DNA from: Lachnospiraceae bacterium
GTDB taxonomy: Bacteria > Bacillota > Clostridia > Lachnospirales > Lachnospiraceae
Reading direction: 5' to 3'
DNA length: 49,008 bases
Assembly (NCBI GenBank): GCA_017472605.1
Contig: JAFUPV010000043.1
Location: 1 to 49,008 of the forward strand
Part shown: positions 292 to 8,918 of the stretch, piece after piece
Position numbering within the stretch: position 1 is the stretch's first letter
Layout of the letters: every line of letters starts with the position of its first letter
Made by a program: the position numbers and the translations under genes
The notes under the pieces: model-generated
What the model was told of the DNA's origin: nothing
Databases searched by the model: none
What the model saw: only the letters and a program-made list of their open reading frames with translations

Positions 292-762
292 ATGGTGATT
301 AGAAAATCTCAATTTCAAACAGCCAGTAGAGTGGTTCAGTTAGGTAACTCGGTAACATGGCTGAGAAATCAAAATACACAATTTATGGGATTGACAGCTA
401 CGCAAAGCGAAGCTATCCGATTTATATTGAAAAATTATGCAGAAAAAGAGCTTACGGCAGCTGATTTGATGGAGCATCTTCATCTGTCGCAGTCTACAGT
501 CGCAGGAATCATCAAGAGACTGGAAAACAAGTCTTTGATTAAGCGTACAATTGCTGTGGGAGATGGTCGAAAAAGTATTATAACGCCGAGCGAAGATGGT
601 TTGCGTTTAGAAGAAAATCTGAAACTTACCGCTGTTGATACAGAACAAATCATTGTACATGGTATGACACCAACAGAACAAGCGCAATTTAACAGACTGC
701 TGCAAAAAGCTTTAGATAACATAAATGCCGTAAGAAAGATGAGGGAAGAATCAAATGGATGA
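292..762 (+). CDS. MarR-family transcriptional regulator
   Basis: This 156-residue protein has the MarR winged-helix layout: an N-terminal dimerisation helix, a helix-turn-helix near residues 57-78 (LTAADLMEHLHLSQSTVAGI), and a wing around residues 84-98 containing the conserved D-G-R-K motif. Such proteins repress drug-efflux or stress genes and are released by small ligands. The start is supported by the AAGGGAG at 281-287. The stop overlaps the ATG of the following MATE efflux gene at 755, so the two formed an operon, and the palindromes upstream suggest autoregulation. Because the MATE gene is now broken, the regulator may have lost its local target. Family assignment is firm; ligand unknown. 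Confidence 0.92.
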   Translation: MVIRKSQFQTASRVVQLGNSVTWLRNQNTQFMGLTATQSEAIRFILKNYAEKELTAADLMEHLHLSQSTVAGIIKRLENKSLIKRTIAVGDGRKSIITPSEDGLRLEENLKLTAVDTEQIIVHGMTPTEQAQFNRLLQKALDNINAVRKMREESNG

Positions 763-1766
763 GAATAAGAAAATATTTGAATCAATGCCCGTGCCAAAGG
801 CATTGGCTACATTAGCGATTCCAACGATTATCAGCCAGCTCATTACAATGATTTATAATCTTGCTGATACCTATTTTATCGGTTAGACAAATGACTCTTA
901 CAAAGTAACAGCAGCCTCTTTGGCGTATGTGCTGTTCTTCGTAATGAACGCCCTTTCAAACCTTTTTGGTATTGGCGGCGGAAGCCTGATTTCGCGCTTA
1001 CTTGGTCAAGAAAAGGGGGAAGAAGCAAAAAAAGTCTGTTCCTTCAGCTTTTACGGTACGATTGCAGTTACTTCTGTATATTGTCTTGCCAGCTTCATTT
1101 TCATGGAGCCGTTGCTTCGATTGTTAGGAGCAAGCGATAATACACTTGGCTATGCATCAGCCTACACGCTTTGGGGTGTTGTAATAGGTGGTATTCCATC
1201 TACGCTTAGTATGACAATGGCACATTCGCTTCGCAGTGAAGGTTATGCGAAGCAGGCGAGCTTTGGTCTCGGTATGGGCGGTGTACTAAATATGATTCTT
1301 GATCCTCTGTTTATGTTCGTTATACTGAAGCCCGGATTGGAAGTAACCGGTGCAGCAGTTGCCACAATGATTTCCAATGAGTGGTATTGCTTTTGCAGGA
1401 CTGTGCATTGTGATTTTTGAGCTTTTTGCAAGTCAGATTGTTGGAATGTTCATTGTTGAACCAGAAACATTACGTTTGGGAACAGAGTTCTTACGGATTT
1501 GCTGTATTGCAACACCTGTTATGATCTGTAATTTCCAGATGAGTTATACAGTCCAGGCAATGGGCAAAGGGCTGCAGTCTTTGCTGCTTTCTACCTGCCG
1601 TCAGGGACTTATCAATATACCTCTGCTGTTTCTTATGAATCACATTTTCGGACTCTATGGCATTGCATGGACACAGCTTCTTTCTGATGGTATTACGCTG
1701 ATTATTTCCTTTGCACTCTATCAGAAAGTATATCGTGAGTTAACAGCCTCAGCGCAATCACAATAA
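755..1766 (+). pseudogene. MATE-family multidrug efflux transporter, decayed
   Basis: The reading frame opens at 755, overlapping the marR stop, and encodes a typical MATE N terminus (IPTIISQLITMIYNLADTYF) before an in-frame TAG at 884-886, at a place where relatives usually have Gln after FIG. The same frame continues to 1420 with recognisable MATE helices (NLFGIGGGSLISRLLGQ, GAAVATMISN). At about 1377 homology resumes in another frame (SGIAFAGLCIVIF to the stop at 1766). Only about 340 codons remain against roughly 450 in intact relatives, so about 100 codons between helices are missing. A nonsense codon plus a frame-changing deletion make it a clear pseudogene. It was probably controlled by the adjacent MarR. 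Confidence 0.88.
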
Positions 1767-1892: not shown

Positions 1893-2894
1893 TCAGGCTT
1901 TCCACTCAAGATACCCGCTTGTAAACGGAAGATGGTCAAACTTTTTGGTTCCGGTATGTACAAAGCCATTCGCTATGTACCAATTCTTCAAAACGGTACT
2001 TTCTTCGATAATACCGATTTTTATCACACTGCCGCCCGATGCTTTCACTGCATCCTTTGCGTGATTGAGAAGCTGTTTTCCAAAACCGTTGTGTCTGTAT
2101 TCCGGTAACACGGCAAGGTTGTGAAGCACGAAGGAATCGTCACTTTCTTTCGAGAGCGACATGTATCCAATAATTTTCTTACCGGCATAGAGTGCATACA
2201 TATTCCAACCCCAATTCTTCTGTGTCTCAAGAAAACAGAGCGGGAGGAAACTTGTGTGCTTCGGACAGTTTTCTTTCGTCAATCCAAACTGATCTGCCAC
2301 CGTGCGGAAGCTCTGATGAATGACATCCAGGCATTCACTCAACTCATTCGGCTCAACCTCATAAATCATCGGCAGGGAAACGCCCGCCGGGTCGAATGGT
2401 TCGCTTACCGTCTTTTTGAACATTGCCAGAGTCGGTGCGTCCTCCATGGTAATTCGTTCTCCGGTGTCGCTGTAACCGGCGCTCTGGTAGCATTTCCGAT
2501 TCTTTTCCATGACTTCCGGAAAATCGACATAATAGAATTTCGCATCAGCAAATTCCTTTTCACAGAGCAGAATCGCTTTTCGTGCGATTCCTTTGTTTTG
2601 ATAGTCTGGGTGAATGTAAATTCGTGCAAGATAATATTCGTGCTCACCAATCTCGTCGACAGGACTTCGTTTTCCGTACAGACGGTAGAAGATACCGCCA
2701 ACAATTCTTCCATCAAGAAGAATTGTGAAATGACGGTTGAACTTATTAAGCCTGCGGAGAATATCTTCGGAACCTCTGAGGAATGGGTTTCCTTTATCAT
2801 GGAATTTTTCGTACAAAGGTTGAAAAGCTGCTTTCTGTATTTGTGATAATTCCTCAGCTTCCGAGGCATTTGTGATTTTAATTGAAAGATTCAT
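1893..2894 (-). CDS. Tandem GNAT-domain N-acetyltransferase
   Basis: This 333-residue protein contains two GNAT folds. The first shows the acetyl-CoA motif around IYIHPDYQNKGIARKAI and the second around LAVLPEYRHNGFGKQLL; both have the R/Q-x-x-G-x-G/A pyrophosphate loop (QNKGIA, RHNGFG). GNAT enzymes move an acetyl group from acetyl-CoA to an amine; the substrate cannot be read from sequence. The ATG at 2894 is chosen because GAAAGGAA lies just upstream; a more upstream ATG (2921) has no such site. The start lies inside the 3' end of the methyltransferase gene (17-nt overlap), so the two are translationally coupled and share the leader and attenuator at 3713-3957. An antibiotic-modifying role is possible but unproven. 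Confidence 0.88.
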   Translation of the reverse strand: MNLSIKITNASEAEELSQIQKAAFQPLYEKFHDKGNPFLRGSEDILRRLNKFNRHFTILLDGRIVGGIFYRLYGKRSPVDEIGEHEYYLARIYIHPDYQNKGIARKAILLCEKEFADAKFYYVDFPEVMEKNRKCYQSAGYSDTGERITMEDAPTLAMFKKTVSEPFDPAGVSLPMIYEVEPNELSECLDVIHQSFRTVADQFGLTKENCPKHTSFLPLCFLETQKNWGWNMYALYAGKKIIGYMSLSKESDDSFVLHNLAVLPEYRHNGFGKQLLNHAKDAVKASGGSVIKIGIIEESTVLKNWYIANGFVHTGTKKFDHLPFTSGYLEWKA

Positions 2895-3687
2895 AACTCG
2901 ATTCCTTTCTGAAAATATCAAGCGTGTGATGTGAGTAGCCTACCATATCCGGTCTTTCGCAGGTCGCAAGATGATACTTTACGTAAAGCTCATACATTCG
3001 ATCATCCATATGATTCACCGTTTCTCTCATATGGTTCGTATAACCATCAGAAGCAACGAAATGGAGCTGCGTTACAGGAAATTCGGAGCGAAGTTTATCA
3101 ATATCTTCTTTTCTGTAAAGCTCAAAAATATCCCATGGATTAGAGAACGTGTCAAAGGTTTCTGGATTGAGCATACATTTCTCAATAATATGATAGATTT
3201 CGCCACGAACAAATCCATACGATAAAATGCTTGCATCACCCATACAGTAAGCGGCAAAAACAATGCCATTTTTCTTTGTAACCCGGATTGCTTCAGACAA
3301 AGCTTTCCGTTTATCTTCTGTAGTGAAAAGGTGATACATGGGACCGAGCAGCAGGGTGATGTCATAGGTATCATCTTCAAACATGGATAAATCCATCGCA
3401 TTGCCCTGGGTGATGGTGACTGTTTCGCCAGGAGTTGTGTTTTGCTTGAATATTTCGATGTTGTGTTCAACGAGTTCTACCGCATCCACGCAATAACCTT
3501 TCTGAGCCAGAGCATGACTATAGCGACCCGTTGCGGCTCCGATTTCCAGAATTCTCATGCCCGGTTGAAGATACTTTTCCACATACTTCATAGTGGTGAG
3601 GTATTCAATCATTCCGTGCCTGGAGATCAGACGACCGTTTTCTTCATATCCCTCATAATAGTTTGTCAAATAATCTTTTTTATCCAT
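2878..3687 (-). CDS. Class I SAM-dependent methyltransferase
   Basis: The 269-residue protein has a Rossmann-type SAM-binding core: motif I ILEIGAATGRYSHAL (about residues 46-60), an acidic residue ending strand 2 (VDAVEL), and motif IV LLLGPMYHL. It lacks the N-x-P-Y motif of rRNA adenine dimethylases, so it is not an Erm enzyme; motif IV resembles small-molecule methyltransferases. The start at 3687 follows GGAGG by seven bases. Its ORF overlaps the downstream GNAT gene. Upstream are a strong promoter, a 36-codon leader peptide and a terminator ending about 25 nt before the start, implying expression only when the terminator is bypassed. Substrate unknown; resistance to a ribosome-targeting drug is a hypothesis from this architecture. 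Confidence 0.88.
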   Translation of the reverse strand: MDKKDYLTNYYEGYEENGRLISRHGMIEYLTTMKYVEKYLQPGMRILEIGAATGRYSHALAQKGYCVDAVELVEHNIEIFKQNTTPGETVTITQGNAMDLSMFEDDTYDITLLLGPMYHLFTTEDKRKALSEAIRVTKKNGIVFAAYCMGDASILSYGFVRGEIYHIIEKCMLNPETFDTFSNPWDIFELYRKEDIDKLRSEFPVTQLHFVASDGYTNHMRETVNHMDDRMYELYVKYHLATCERPDMVGYSHHTLDIFRKESSYESFN

Positions 3688-3712
3688 CTTGAAACCTCCG
3701 ATCAGAAAGTAT

Positions 3713-3753
3713 AAAAAAACGGTGCGAATCGAAAATTACTTCGACTTGCACCG
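3713..3753 (-). terminator. Intrinsic terminator/attenuator before the methyltransferase
   Basis: On the minus strand, 3753-3740 pairs with 3733-3720 (11 of 14 positions, closed by CGGTGC/GCACCG, loop 3739-3734), followed directly by seven T residues (complement of 3719-3713). It sits between the leader peptide and the methyltransferase start and so would stop transcription before the operon unless antiterminated. Confidence 0.85.
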
Positions 3754-3788
3754 TAAGTATCCTAAAATCCAATCATCCTGCAAAAAGG

Positions 3789-3899
3789 TTATCCTGAAAT
3801 TTGGGTACAACAATACAAGCCCGACCGATACCAATACATAGTATCTGCGCCGTGCATCGGGACAGTATTAAGGTTGAAAATAGAATTCTTAACGGTCAT
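3789..3899 (-). CDS. 36-codon leader peptide of the methyltransferase operon
   Basis: Reading the minus strand from the ATG at 3899, 36 codons run to a TAA at 3791-3789. The peptide begins MTVKNSIFNLNTVPMHG and ends YWYRSGLYCCTQISG. AAAGGA stands eight bases before the ATG, and the promoter at 3957-3929 puts the transcription start about 20 nt upstream. The ORF ends about 35 nt before the terminator stem. Promoter, short ORF with good ribosome binding site, terminator, then resistance-type genes is the architecture of ribosome-mediated attenuation, in which a stalled ribosome changes the RNA fold. No match to a named leader peptide is claimed. Confidence 0.72.
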   Translation of the reverse strand: MTVKNSIFNLNTVPMHGADTMYWYRSGLYCCTQISG

Positions 3900-3928
3900 T
3901 GTCGTAGTCCTTTCAGAAAATTTTATCA

Positions 3929-3957
3929 AATATAGCACATTTTGAAGATGAAGTCAA
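3929..3957 (-). promoter_or_regulatory. Promoter of the leader-methyltransferase-GNAT operon
   Basis: On the minus strand TTGACT (3957-3952) and TATATT (3934-3929) are separated by 17 bp. This is close to the sigma-A consensus and points at the leader peptide start 30 nt downstream. Confidence 0.85.
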
Positions 3958-4000: not shown

Positions 4001-4879
4001 TTATTCTTTCAACTCTACGGGAATCCAAACCTCGTAGTATCGATTCTTCTGACGGAGATCGTGGTCTGTCCAGAGGTGCAGAACTTCGATAGCGAGATCA
4101 TATTTCTGCCTGTACTCAGAGGCAGGAAGCCACGAATCGAAGATCAGATCAAACAGCTTCGGAAACTCCTCCCATGCAAGTCCGCCACATTCCGTTTTGA
4201 ACGCTGCATATGTTCCTGCAGGCAGTGTTCTTGTTTCCAGGTCAACGGTCTTTACGTTGTCTTTCCCGCGGGCAATCATGTATTTGCCGTCCTGCCAGAT
4301 GCCATACCAGACACCATCGTAAGAAGTGCTGCCGGGCTGATTCCAACCACCTTCGCAAAGCTGACCGGGCACGTCATCGCAATTATTCGCCCACATGGAA
4401 TGGCGCAGTTCTTCACGAGTCTTATAACCTTGTCCCTCGTACTGCCTGGATACACCGTACACAACGGTATCCTCTAACTCAACAATTCTGAAATCCATTT
4501 CTTTTGCTCCTTTAATCATGATGTGAAAGGAAGCAGGTGAATATACTTTGAGCGAACCGCCGTCTTTCCGATAAACGGACGGTGTAATGCCGTGCTGTTT
4601 TGCAAAGGCTCTGGAAAAAGCTGCAGCGCTGTCATAGCCGTATTTTATGGCAATGTCCATGATTGTGTCCTGGCTGTGCTGCAAATCCTGCGCCGCAAGA
4701 GTCAGCCGTCTGCGCCGTATGTACTCGGTCAGAGTCATTCCGGTCATGTAGCTGAAGAAGCGAAGGAAACTATCAGCAGCAACACAGGCGATACCGGCTG
4801 CCGTATCAAGATCGAATTCTGCGCATAAGTTCGCCTCAATATATTCAATCGCTGAGTTCAGTTGTTTTAACATATTCAT
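4001..4879 (-). CDS. AraC-family regulator with GyrI-like effector domain
   Basis: The 292-residue protein has an N-terminal AraC DNA-binding domain (residues about 1-105) with two helix-turn-helix units; the second reads MDIAIKYGYDSAAAFSRAF, followed by the family signature GITPSVYRK. The C-terminal half (from about 125) is a GyrI-like/SHS2 effector domain that binds small, often hydrophobic or cationic molecules, with typical WYGIWQDGKYMIARG and LPAGTYAAF segments. This is the Rob/BltR-like arrangement of regulators of multidrug and stress genes. The start at 4879 is placed by the strong GGGAGGTGA upstream. It is co-oriented with and upstream of the attenuated methyltransferase operon, so it could influence it, but that operon has its own promoter. 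Confidence 0.88.
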   Translation of the reverse strand: MNMLKQLNSAIEYIEANLCAEFDLDTAAGIACVAADSFLRFFSYMTGMTLTEYIRRRRLTLAAQDLQHSQDTIMDIAIKYGYDSAAAFSRAFAKQHGITPSVYRKDGGSLKVYSPASFHIMIKGAKEMDFRIVELEDTVVYGVSRQYEGQGYKTREELRHSMWANNCDDVPGQLCEGGWNQPGSTSYDGVWYGIWQDGKYMIARGKDNVKTVDLETRTLPAGTYAAFKTECGGLAWEEFPKLFDLIFDSWLPASEYRQKYDLAIEVLHLWTDHDLRQKNRYYEVWIPVELKE

Positions 4880-7927: not shown

Positions 7928-7954
7928 GCAGACAACCGCATAAGAAAAAACAGA

Positions 7955-8060
7955 AAAGCGCAGGGGCGCTGGAGGACAACTCCGGCTGAGATTGAAGCAT
8001 AGTGCTGCTTCATGCACCTTGTACCTGATCCGGGTAATGCCGGCGTAGGAAGCACGCGTC
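7955..8060 (+). promoter_or_regulatory. TPP riboswitch (THI element) before thiT
   Basis: The conserved THI-box blocks occur in order: CAGGGGCGCT at 7961-7970, CGGCTGAGAT at 7983-7992, ACCTGATCCGGGTAATGCC at 8023-8041 and GGCGTAGGAAGC at 8042-8053. This RNA binds thiamine pyrophosphate. A terminator 20 nt downstream indicates control by premature termination when TPP is plentiful. Confidence 0.95.
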
Positions 8061-8079
8061 TGATAATTAATGGATTCGT

Positions 8080-8729: not shown

Positions 8730-8747
8730 ACGAAAAACAACTGAACA

Positions 8748-8869
8748 ACAGGGGAGCTTGCAGAGAGAAAGCAGACAACATGTTTCTTTCACCGGACAGG
8801 CTGAGAGGAAGGTATGCCCTTCGACCCATAACCTGATTTGGATAATGCCAACGTAGGGACTTGCAAGCA
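8748..8869 (+). promoter_or_regulatory. Second TPP riboswitch, before thiM
   Basis: THI-box blocks recur: GGGGAGCTTGCA (8751-8762), CAGGCTGAGAGG (8797-8808), ACCTGATTTGGATAATGCC (8831-8849) and AACGTAGGGAC (8850-8860), closed by TTGCAAGC (8861-8868) pairing with GCTTGCA. It lies 18 bp after thiT and has a terminator after it, so thiM is regulated separately from thiT. Confidence 0.95.
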
Positions 8870-8873
8870 GCAC

Positions 8874-8918
8874 AAGATGCAGATATGCGACAACAAAAGG
8901 CATACCTGCATCTTTTTT
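8874..8918 (+). terminator. Riboswitch-controlled terminator before thiM
   Basis: The 15-nt arm 8874-8888 pairs with 8900-8914 with one mismatch, and the stem is followed by a T run to 8918. It lies between the second TPP aptamer and the thiM start. Confidence 0.88.

What the first reader, a model, noticed from the sequence alone, without database searches (positions are those of the whole stretch)
2878..3957. Leader-peptide/terminator switch upstream of a methyltransferase-GNAT operon
Seen: on the minus strand a near-consensus promoter (3957-3929), a 36-codon ORF with AAAGGA and ATG (3899-3789), a terminator with a seven-T tail (3753-3713), then a SAM methyltransferase overlapping a two-domain GNAT acetyltransferase. 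Known: this order is the hallmark of ribosome-mediated attenuation of antibiotic-resistance genes, where drug-stalled ribosomes on a leader peptide prevent termination. Inference: the two enzymes may modify a ribosome-targeting drug or a stress metabolite. The leader (rich in Tyr/Trp/Cys in its second half) is not one I recognise, and the methyltransferase is not of the Erm type.
Basis: partly seen in the sequence, partly recalled or inferred. Interest (0 to 1): 0.75.

Follow-up and report, generated by a model that had tools for sequence, protein, structure and literature searches.

The report
Trp-codon attenuator controlling detoxification-type operon
Upstream of a methyltransferase-acetyltransferase operon lies a short leader reading frame and an RNA switch that recurs in Clostridia before many different toxin-inactivation-like genes, which suggests that these enzymes are switched on when ribosomes stall, here probably at a tryptophan codon.

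Summary
Confirmed and extended. Promoter, 36-codon leader, terminator and methyltransferase (MT1)-GNAT operon are as described. The missing piece is an antiterminator: leader element E2 (GGGCTTRYATTG) pairs with the terminator's 5' arm, with compensatory changes (93.6% of cells paired; slid controls 30-41%). A helix sequestering E2 would complete a 1:2 / 2:3 / 3:4 attenuator, but is the weakest. Of 69 MT1 relatives, 52 have a leader frame. An RNA model built from MT1-type leaders also found the switch before other genes: 57 of 60 further model hits have a member of one enzyme pool within 1.3 kb, including GNATs, a second methyltransferase, a P-loop kinase, an MccF-like peptidase and a streptomycin-adenylyltransferase relative. 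The peptide drifts in the main MT1 groups (pN/pS about 1), yet one Trp codon 10-12 nt before E2 is kept in 45 of 53 MT1 leaders. Leaderless MT1 in L035/L036 sits inside a trp operon, between trpF and trpB; in L040/L041 trpS follows leader-MT1. So: ribosome-mediated attenuation, sensing failed Trp decoding in MT1 operons; whether starvation or a toxin causes this is open. No Rfam match, no description found.

The parts
3929..3957 (-). sigma-70-type promoter TTGACT-N17-TATATT with TG before the -10
   Evidence: a promoter of at least 10/12 before 45 of 49 leaders, -10 end to ATG 26-30 nt in 39 of those 45
3908..3913 (-). leader ribosome-binding site AAAGGA
   Evidence: an AGG-type site before the start was a search criterion in relatives
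3789..3899 (-). 36-codon leader ORF MTVKNSIFNLNTVPMHGADTMYWYRSGLYCCTQISG
   Evidence: leaders found by script have 29-45 codons and mostly end 24-33 nt after E2 begins
3831..3833 (-). conserved Trp codon (TGG), candidate stall codon, 11 nt before E2
   Evidence: Trp in 45 of 53 MT1 leaders, entropy 0.98 bits against 2.20-3.28 at the 12 upstream codons
3849..3859 (-). segment 1, predicted to pair with 3820-3811 (anti-antiterminator P1); inner hairpin 3845-3841 with 3831-3827 spans the Tyr-Trp codons
   Evidence: fold (E2 paired upstream 0.66); another form of P1 covaries in 28 chosen relatives; against shuffles only moderate
3810..3822 (-). E2, antiterminator 5' strand GGGCTTGTATTGT (segment 2)
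   Evidence: found in all three reading frames in different leaders; 12 pairs with the terminator 5' arm, 93.6% of cells paired, 25 double-changed cells
3743..3754 (-). segment 3, terminator 5' arm ACGGTGCAAGTC, shared by antiterminator and terminator
3713..3754 (-). intrinsic terminator (segments 3:4 plus T7)
   Evidence: -20.5 kcal/mol, z -6.8; 87 double-changed cells, 11 of 15 pairs
2878..3687 (-). MT1, class I SAM-dependent methyltransferase, not of the Erm type
   Evidence: Pfam Methyltransf_25 E 3.3e-14; Erm model 19.4 bits against cut-off 212
1893..2894 (-). two-domain GNAT acetyltransferase, overlapping MT1
   Evidence: Pfam Acetyltransf_1, two stretches; the same family within 3.6 kb in 12 of 60 other model hits
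4001..4879 (-). upstream neighbour: AraC-type regulator with GyrI-like ligand domain (not shown to belong to the switch)
   Evidence: HTH_18, GyrI-like, Cass2

Best explanation
A ribosome-mediated transcription attenuator. Shown by sequence: leader ORF with promoter and RBS; E2 can pair with the terminator 5' arm (2:3, antiterminator) and that arm pairs with its 3' arm plus T-run (3:4, terminator), both with strong covariation; segment 1 can pair with E2 (1:2), with weaker support. Inferred: when ribosomes run on to the stop codon, about 31 nt after E2 begins, 1:2 reforms and the terminating ribosome covers the loop that the antiterminator needs, so the terminator forms and the operon stays off. 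When a ribosome waits with the conserved Trp codon in its A site, it disrupts segment 1 while its leading edge (about +16 from the P-site codon) ends at the first bases of E2, so E2 captures the terminator arm before the 3' arm is made and RNA polymerase reads into MT1 and GNAT. In MT1 operons the signal is thus failure to decode a Trp codon, through shortage of charged tRNA-Trp. From the other genes under the same switch, I think the purpose is most likely defence: shortage caused by a toxin, such as a Trp analogue or an inhibitor of tryptophanyl-tRNA synthetase, induces enzymes that inactivate it. Plain Trp limitation as the natural signal is not excluded. MT1's substrate is unknown.
For: Antiterminator: 93.6% of 516 cells paired against 30.4-40.9% in slid controls, 25 double-changed cells, none of 500 shuffles reaches this (43 of 54 rows). 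Terminator: 88.6% paired, 87 double-changed cells. P1 in 28 chosen leaders: outer helix 93.8% paired. E2 lies in all three frames in different leaders, so it is kept as RNA. With the upstream part held by a ribosome and the 3' arm not yet made, E2 pairs with the terminator arm with probability at least 0.5 in 52 of 54; median -23.05 for that segment against -20.5 kcal/mol for the terminator. Trp at the stall position in 45 of 53 MT1 leaders, against 17 TGG in 1839 codons further upstream in leaders. Trp link: MT1 of L035 and L036 (no leader) lies one base behind trpF and before trpB in trpE-G-D-C-F-MT1-B-A; in L040 and L041 leader and MT1 are followed by trpS on the same strand; in L029 a trpB-like gene lies convergent to MT1. 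Regulon: 57 of 60 further model hits have a pool enzyme within 1.3 kb, including an ANT(6) relative (PF04439, 348 bits) and an MccF-like S66 peptidase (325 bits to 4e5s).
Against: No expression data. P1 is the weakest helix: E2 pairs upstream with mean probability 0.52 against 0.41 after shuffling, 75 of 104 higher, rows not independent; in the window 0.74 against 0.50, with 17% of 30 shuffles as high; a simpler test was significant in only 9 of 104. The leader frame is not favoured by pN/pS: in group A (13 leaders) it is 1.02 against 1.21 and 0.55 in the other two frames, in group B (4, with the window) 0.92 against 0.81 and 0.64. The open-frame count is biased, because open frames were chosen (97 of 97 against 21 and 20). 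The Trp codon is not universal: TCG and TTG in L019 and L020, not near E2 in ten second-class MT1 leaders, and near E2 in only 6 of 34 leaders not known to precede MT1. The Trp-gene neighbours are about three lineages among 69 loci; trpS in L040 and L041 is the only trpS match of those genomes, so it is not a spare resistant copy, and whether it shares the MT1 transcript was not tested. The pool's reference proteins came from these same loci and the window, so its rare members are circular.
Confidence: 0.72

Rival explanations
1. Plain tryptophan-limitation attenuator, as in trp operons: MT1 and GNAT serve some metabolic purpose when Trp is short, and no toxin is involved.
For: Trp codon and architecture; MT1 inside a trp operon in L035 and L036, before trpS in L040 and L041, beside a trpB-like gene in L029.
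Against: Usually one Trp codon rather than a tandem run; the same switch without the Trp codon stands before enzymes such as the kinase, nucleoside-phosphorylase relative and fused GNAT-methyltransferase; the Trp-gene neighbours are few.
Confidence: 0.25
2. Drug-dependent arrest peptide, as in erm or tlrB: an antibiotic bound in the ribosome stalls it on a particular nascent peptide at the Trp codon.
For: Resistance-like genes downstream. Leader types go partly with gene types: 4 of 11 MT2-first leaders hold QIS[PT], 2 of 11 TYTGTGL; 3 of 4 before the nucleoside-phosphorylase relative hold DDMLYTGL. Six groups have pN/pS of 0.39-0.62. Weak preferences upstream of Trp: V at -10 and -5, A/T/P at -3, Y at -1.
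Against: pN/pS 1.02 and 0.92 in the MT1 groups nearest the window; only the Trp codon is nearly invariant; preferred residues may reflect segment 1 of P1.
Confidence: 0.2
3. General sensor of slow translation: any agent that slows ribosomes on the leader leads to read-through, and the Trp codon is only a slow codon.
For: Different codons at the same place before other genes; many unrelated enzymes under one switch.
Against: Nearly invariant Trp in MT1 leaders at a steady distance, which such a sensor would not need.
Confidence: 0.18
4. Riboswitch or protein-bound terminator in which the small ORF is not translated.
For: E2 is conserved as RNA in all frames; the leader frame is not favoured by pN/pS in groups A and B.
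Against: RBS, ATG, stop at a steady distance; the Trp codon is in the leader frame whichever frame E2 takes; no Rfam family matches.
Confidence: 0.06

Closest known systems
tlrB (yxjB) leader of Bacillus subtilis (PMC6851288, passages seen)
   Same: Leader peptide, intrinsic terminator and a methyltransferase gene; a stalled ribosome causes read-through, with a defined residue at the A site.
   Different: There a tylosin-bound ribosome stalls on an RYR motif of a 9-residue leader and itself blocks the terminator; the enzyme is the rRNA methyltransferase RlmAII. Here there is a separate antiterminator, the peptide drifts, the enzyme is of another family and other genes share the switch.
ermK-type transcription attenuators (review PMC5418344, passages seen)
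   Same: A stalled ribosome favours an antiterminator over a terminator.
   Different: Erm methylates rRNA; MT1 scores far below the Erm cut-off. No conserved macrolide arrest motif was seen by eye.
Amino-acid attenuators (trp type, recalled; ilvB motif and the cysS motif uORFC-8-2 with two Cys codons, PMC11109978 and PMC8632094, passages seen)
   Same: A control codon placed so that a waiting ribosome frees the antiterminator strand; MT1 is also found with trp genes.
   Different: Mostly a single control codon, and the genes downstream are mostly modifying enzymes rather than biosynthetic ones.
[quoted passage not shown]
   Same: Precedent for an antibiotic that stalls by the A-site codon alone.
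   Different: It acts at Gly codons; no leader system like this one is described in that passage.

Membership tests
Ribosome-mediated transcription attenuators | Leader ORF with promoter and RBS | tested here: met
   Sequence features recur; translation itself not tested, and pN/pS does not favour the frame in groups A and B
Ribosome-mediated transcription attenuators | Antiterminator competing with the terminator for one strand | tested here: met
   Covariation of both helices
Ribosome-mediated transcription attenuators | Anti-antiterminator (1:2) helix | tested here: inconclusive
   Supported in 28 chosen leaders, moderate overall
Ribosome-mediated transcription attenuators | Control codon at a distance that frees segment 2 | tested here: met
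   Trp in 45 of 53 MT1 leaders, 10-12 nt before E2; not met in ten second-class MT1 leaders and most leaders of other genes
Ribosome-mediated transcription attenuators | Stall-dependent read-through | not testable with these tools
   Needs reporter or Term-seq data
Arrest-peptide (Erm-like) leaders | Conserved nascent-peptide motif under purifying selection | tested here: inconclusive
   pN/pS 1.02 and 0.92 in groups A and B, 0.39-0.62 in six groups, 1.23 in one, undefined in two with no synonymous change
Erm rRNA methyltransferases | Match to the Erm family model | tested here: not met
   19.4 bits against cut-off 212
trp operon attenuators | Tandem Trp codons in the leader | tested here: not met
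   Of 49 script-found leaders, 36 have one TGG 8-16 nt before E2, one has two, 12 none; L041 has TGG TGG
trp operon attenuators | Trp genes downstream | tested here: inconclusive
   trpS behind leader and MT1 in L040 and L041; MT1 within a trp operon, without leader, in L035 and L036; not in the window operon
Known Rfam families | Score above gathering threshold over the leader | tested here: not met
   window; 20 leader loci
ANT(6) aminoglycoside adenylyltransferases (gene under the switch in L227) | Match to family model | tested here: inconclusive
   Pfam PF04439 347.9 bits over a cut-off of 22; NCBIfam ANT_6 248.8 bits, below its cut-off of 420

The most novel reading that the evidence does not exclude
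A plug-in defence regulon: one RNA chassis (E2, antiterminator, terminator) stands before a shared pool of about a dozen enzyme families, and the short leader in front of each is an exchangeable sensor whose stall codon or peptide is matched to the toxin that the enzyme removes. In MT1 operons the sensor is a Trp codon and MT1 also travels with trp genes, so the toxin would be one that empties charged tRNA-Trp: a Trp analogue or an inhibitor of tryptophanyl-tRNA synthetase, perhaps a microcin-C-like aminoacyl-nucleotide. MccF-like and S51 peptidases, nucleosidase-like enzyme, phosphoesterase, kinase and GNAT partners would each attack part of such molecules.
Probability: 0.3. Interest if true: 0.88.

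Novelty: new variant of a known kind. Interest (0 to 1): 0.73.

Why it matters
It ties a set of uncharacterised methyltransferases, acetyltransferases, kinases and peptidases of Clostridia into one inducible regulon through a shared, covarying RNA switch, and names a testable signal for the MT1 branch: failure to decode Trp. The switch can be used to find further resistance-type genes and, through a reporter, the natural toxins or shortages that they answer. It also offers a case in which one attenuator chassis has been combined with many leaders and many genes.

Tried and rejected
Erm membership: rejected on model score. Riboswitch: no Rfam match. Weak RNA-model hits: in the class-level search 44 of 391 genomes matched at E <= 1e-3, but most only with the terminator half, often on both strands; I treat G000, G248, G037 and G076 as real there; three weak full-length ones (G206, G327, G154) were not examined. 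The phylum search gave 3 of 398 genomes at E <= 1e-7, of which G948 is an ordinary terminator. A loose locus-by-locus test of segment 1 was significant in 9 of 104. Viral contigs, one Trp-type pattern only: two hits, one and the same stretch inside what looks like a phage structural gene, taken as chance. Plasmids: two MT1 matches; I saw no leader in the 400 nt before the better one; the other was not examined. Two relatives without leader have an upstream ORF that looks TetR-like to me; Pfam gave no match, so no claim. Structure predictions of MT1 and of the kinase had not returned at the last look and are not used. Rows dropped: A1 holds 43 of 54 rows (ten second-class leaders and L012 left out). 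One search leaves out those ten and the four leaders that the script missed; three of these four have Trp, which would make 48 of 57. The P1 alignment holds 28 leaders that I chose, 27 in frame 0 and L039. Eleven of 69 second-set entries had no E2 by my pattern: L162 is not a leader; the other ten were left out of the peptide tables but counted; in L259 and L261 I recognise no leader. Eight duplicates of first-set loci were not counted twice.
Full report
The observation. The hairpin folds at -20.5 kcal/mol, z -6.8.

Conservation. A search with MT1 returned 69 loci, by their titles mostly Clostridia. By script 48 of 69 carry leader ORF, a shared element and a terminator; L037, L038 and L059 have complete leader ORFs that the script missed, L041 has one without a stop before the terminator, L012 lacks a leader start, and 16 show no element that I recognise. 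A promoter of at least 10/12 lies upstream of 45 of 49 leaders (48 loci and the window) against 3% of base-shuffled copies; its -10 ends 26-30 nt before the ATG in 39 of the 45.

The switch. Within these leaders is E2, GGGCTTRYATTG or a variant, in frame 0, 1 or 2 in different leaders, so it is kept as RNA. It is complementary to the terminator's 5' arm. On 43 of 54 aligned rows the 12-pair antiterminator has 93.6% of cells paired (slid controls 30.4-40.9%), five pairs with double changes and 25 such cells; none of 500 shuffles reaches the paired percentage or the 25. The terminator has 88.6% and 87 double-changed cells. One antiterminator pair is broken in 23 of 43 rows (mostly A.C), so the match is not perfect. 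If a ribosome holds the upstream part and the 3' arm is not yet made, E2 pairs with the terminator arm with probability at least 0.5 in 52 of 54 cases; median energies are -23.05 for this segment and -20.5 for the terminator, and for the window -25.0 and -20.2.

Segment 1. In 28 leaders that I chose as one class, AGTCCG pairs with the CGGGCT of E2 (93.8% of cells in the outer helix; double changes in L023, L049 and L056). Over 104 leaders the mean chance that E2 pairs upstream is 0.52 against 0.41 when the upstream part is shuffled, 75 of 104 higher; these rows are related, so its P value is not a fair one, and a simpler test was significant in only 9 of 104. In the window the fold uses 3859-3849 with 3820-3811. 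I hold this helix as likely, not shown.

The stall codon. In 53 MT1 leaders (ten second-class leaders and four that the script missed set aside) the codon 10-12 nt before E2 is Trp in 45, entropy 0.98 bits, against 2.20-3.28 at the twelve codons before it. Further upstream in leaders TGG is 17 of 1839 codons. The rest of the peptide is loosely kept: pN/pS is 1.02 in group A (13 leaders) and 0.92 in group B (4, with the window), where the other two frames give 1.21 and 0.55, and 0.81 and 0.64; it is 0.39-0.62 in six groups of 2-4 leaders, 1.23 in one, and undefined in two without synonymous change. With Trp in the A site the leading edge of the ribosome (about +16 from the P-site codon; PMC6851288 uses 15 to 16) falls on the first bases of E2. 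Over all 97 leaders, Trp lies 8-16 nt before E2 in 49 of 63 MT1-first ones and 6 of the 34 others, two of which have no classified first gene; two relatives have TCG and TTG instead (L019, L020).

The Trp link. In L035 and L036, one lineage whose MT1 is 66% identical to the window's, MT1 has no leader but lies between trpF and trpB in a run trpE (cut)-G-D-C-F-MT1-B-A, one base behind the trpF stop. NCBIfam names these genes, with trpB, trpA, trpD and trpC above their cut-offs and the trpF match (159.6 bits) and cut trpE below theirs. In L040 and L041 leader and MT1 are followed on the same strand by trpS (337 and 343 bits, cut-off 176.75). It is the only trpS match in both genomes, so it is the housekeeping enzyme, and it may have its own promoter. 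In L029 a gene 49% identical to that trpB lies convergent behind MT1. These are about three lineages among 69 loci and no chance level was computed, but a place inside a trp operon is hard to ascribe to chance.

The regulon. A covariance model from 43 MT1-type leaders found second and third copies in genomes of the first set and matches in 45 of 394 genomes of the order of G423, but strong full-length matches in only 4 of 391 genomes of the window's class and 2 of 398 of its phylum after removing a false one. In 57 of 60 non-duplicate further hits a member of one enzyme pool lies within 1.3 kb downstream; two of the three exceptions end at a contig edge. Members within 3.6 kb, by number of loci and best-matching reference: MT1 23, P-loop kinase 13, GNAT2dom 12, MT2 12, fused GNAT-methyltransferase 12, GNATc4 11, nucleoside-phosphorylase relative 10, GNATrimL 7, 2H 3, GNATc8 3, S66 2, S51 2, ANT(6) 1, GNAT-nucleotidyltransferase 1. 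The reference proteins came from these loci and the window, so single members are circular; the recurring ones are not. I ran no control for how often such genes follow a random place. Mixed operons recur: MT1-GNAT2dom-2H-kinase-GNATc4 in L003, whose MT1 is the most similar one; MT2-GNAT2dom-2H-kinase in L148; ANT(6)-MT1 in L227. Family evidence: PF04439 347.9 bits and NCBIfam ANT_6 248.8 bits, below its cut-off of 420; the S66 protein 325 bits to the MccF-like 4e5s; PF01048, PF13563, PF03575. The kinase has no Pfam, NCBIfam or PDB sequence match at the limits used; its name rests on a GxxxxGK motif that I recall. 'Nucleotidyltransferase' in L186 is likewise by eye.

How it works. See Best explanation. 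Shown: the alternative helices and the placement of codon, element and stop. Inferred: translation, stalling, read-through and the nature of the signal. The toxin reading rests on the company that the switch keeps, the Trp reading on the codon and the Trp-gene neighbours; no induction data exist here.

Against known systems. Transcription attenuation by stalled ribosomes is known for ermK and tlrB (PMC5418344, PMC6851288; passages seen) and for amino-acid genes (PMC8632094, PMC11109978; passages seen). An antibiotic that pauses ribosomes by the A-site codon alone is on record for bottromycin A2 and Gly (PMC13410324, passage seen). Of PMC7298713, on a Trp leader peptide acting in trans on a multiresistance operon of Sinorhizobium, I saw the abstract and outline; that is another mechanism. 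No Rfam family matches, and eight paper searches listed nothing that I recognise as this switch; only open-licence papers are held, and I saw listings and passages.

Origin of the window copy. As far as listed, none of 15 other same-family genomes has the switch at E <= 1e-7, and in the genus MT1 is found in one of two other genomes, at 35% identity only; the operon is 42% G+C in a 48% window. Horizontal gain is likely; a misbinned contig is not excluded.

Noticed in passing
G000:C50:9324-9502 (L269): In the window's own genome, behind a gene that looks like a CoA ligase to me, lies a terminator very like those of MT1 leaders, and 68 nt further a 56-base stretch 82% identical to the 3' end of MT1: apparently a deletion relic of a second leader-MT1 copy.
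   Followed up: partly
L035 and L036, 187-6813: MT1 sits inside a trp operon between trpF and trpB; what it does there is unexplained.
   Followed up: partly
window 292-1766 (+): A MarR-type regulator (Pfam) followed by what looks like a MATE transporter gene, interrupted by a stop and a frame change; described only.
   Followed up: partly
window 4001-4879 (-): AraC-type regulator with a GyrI-like ligand-binding domain directly upstream of the leader promoter; whether it acts on the operon is unknown.
   Followed up: no
L041:3824-4786: The leader ORF has no stop before the terminator and runs in frame through it into MT1.
   Followed up: no
L148, L152, L186, L189: Just after the terminator these MT2-first operons carry a further small ORF beginning MPEQ or MLEQ and containing V-R/H-H/P, perhaps a second leader.
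   Followed up: no
L046, L048, L051-L053, L057, L058, L061, L068, L070: A second leader class (like MNTYL...WLAQYDYQS...GRLIPLYS) where the Trp codon is 33-39 nt before E2 and is followed by CTTGCAC, itself similar to E2; its stall point is unclear.
   Followed up: partly
window 7952-8068 and 8740-8876 (+): Two TPP riboswitches by Rfam.
   Followed up: no
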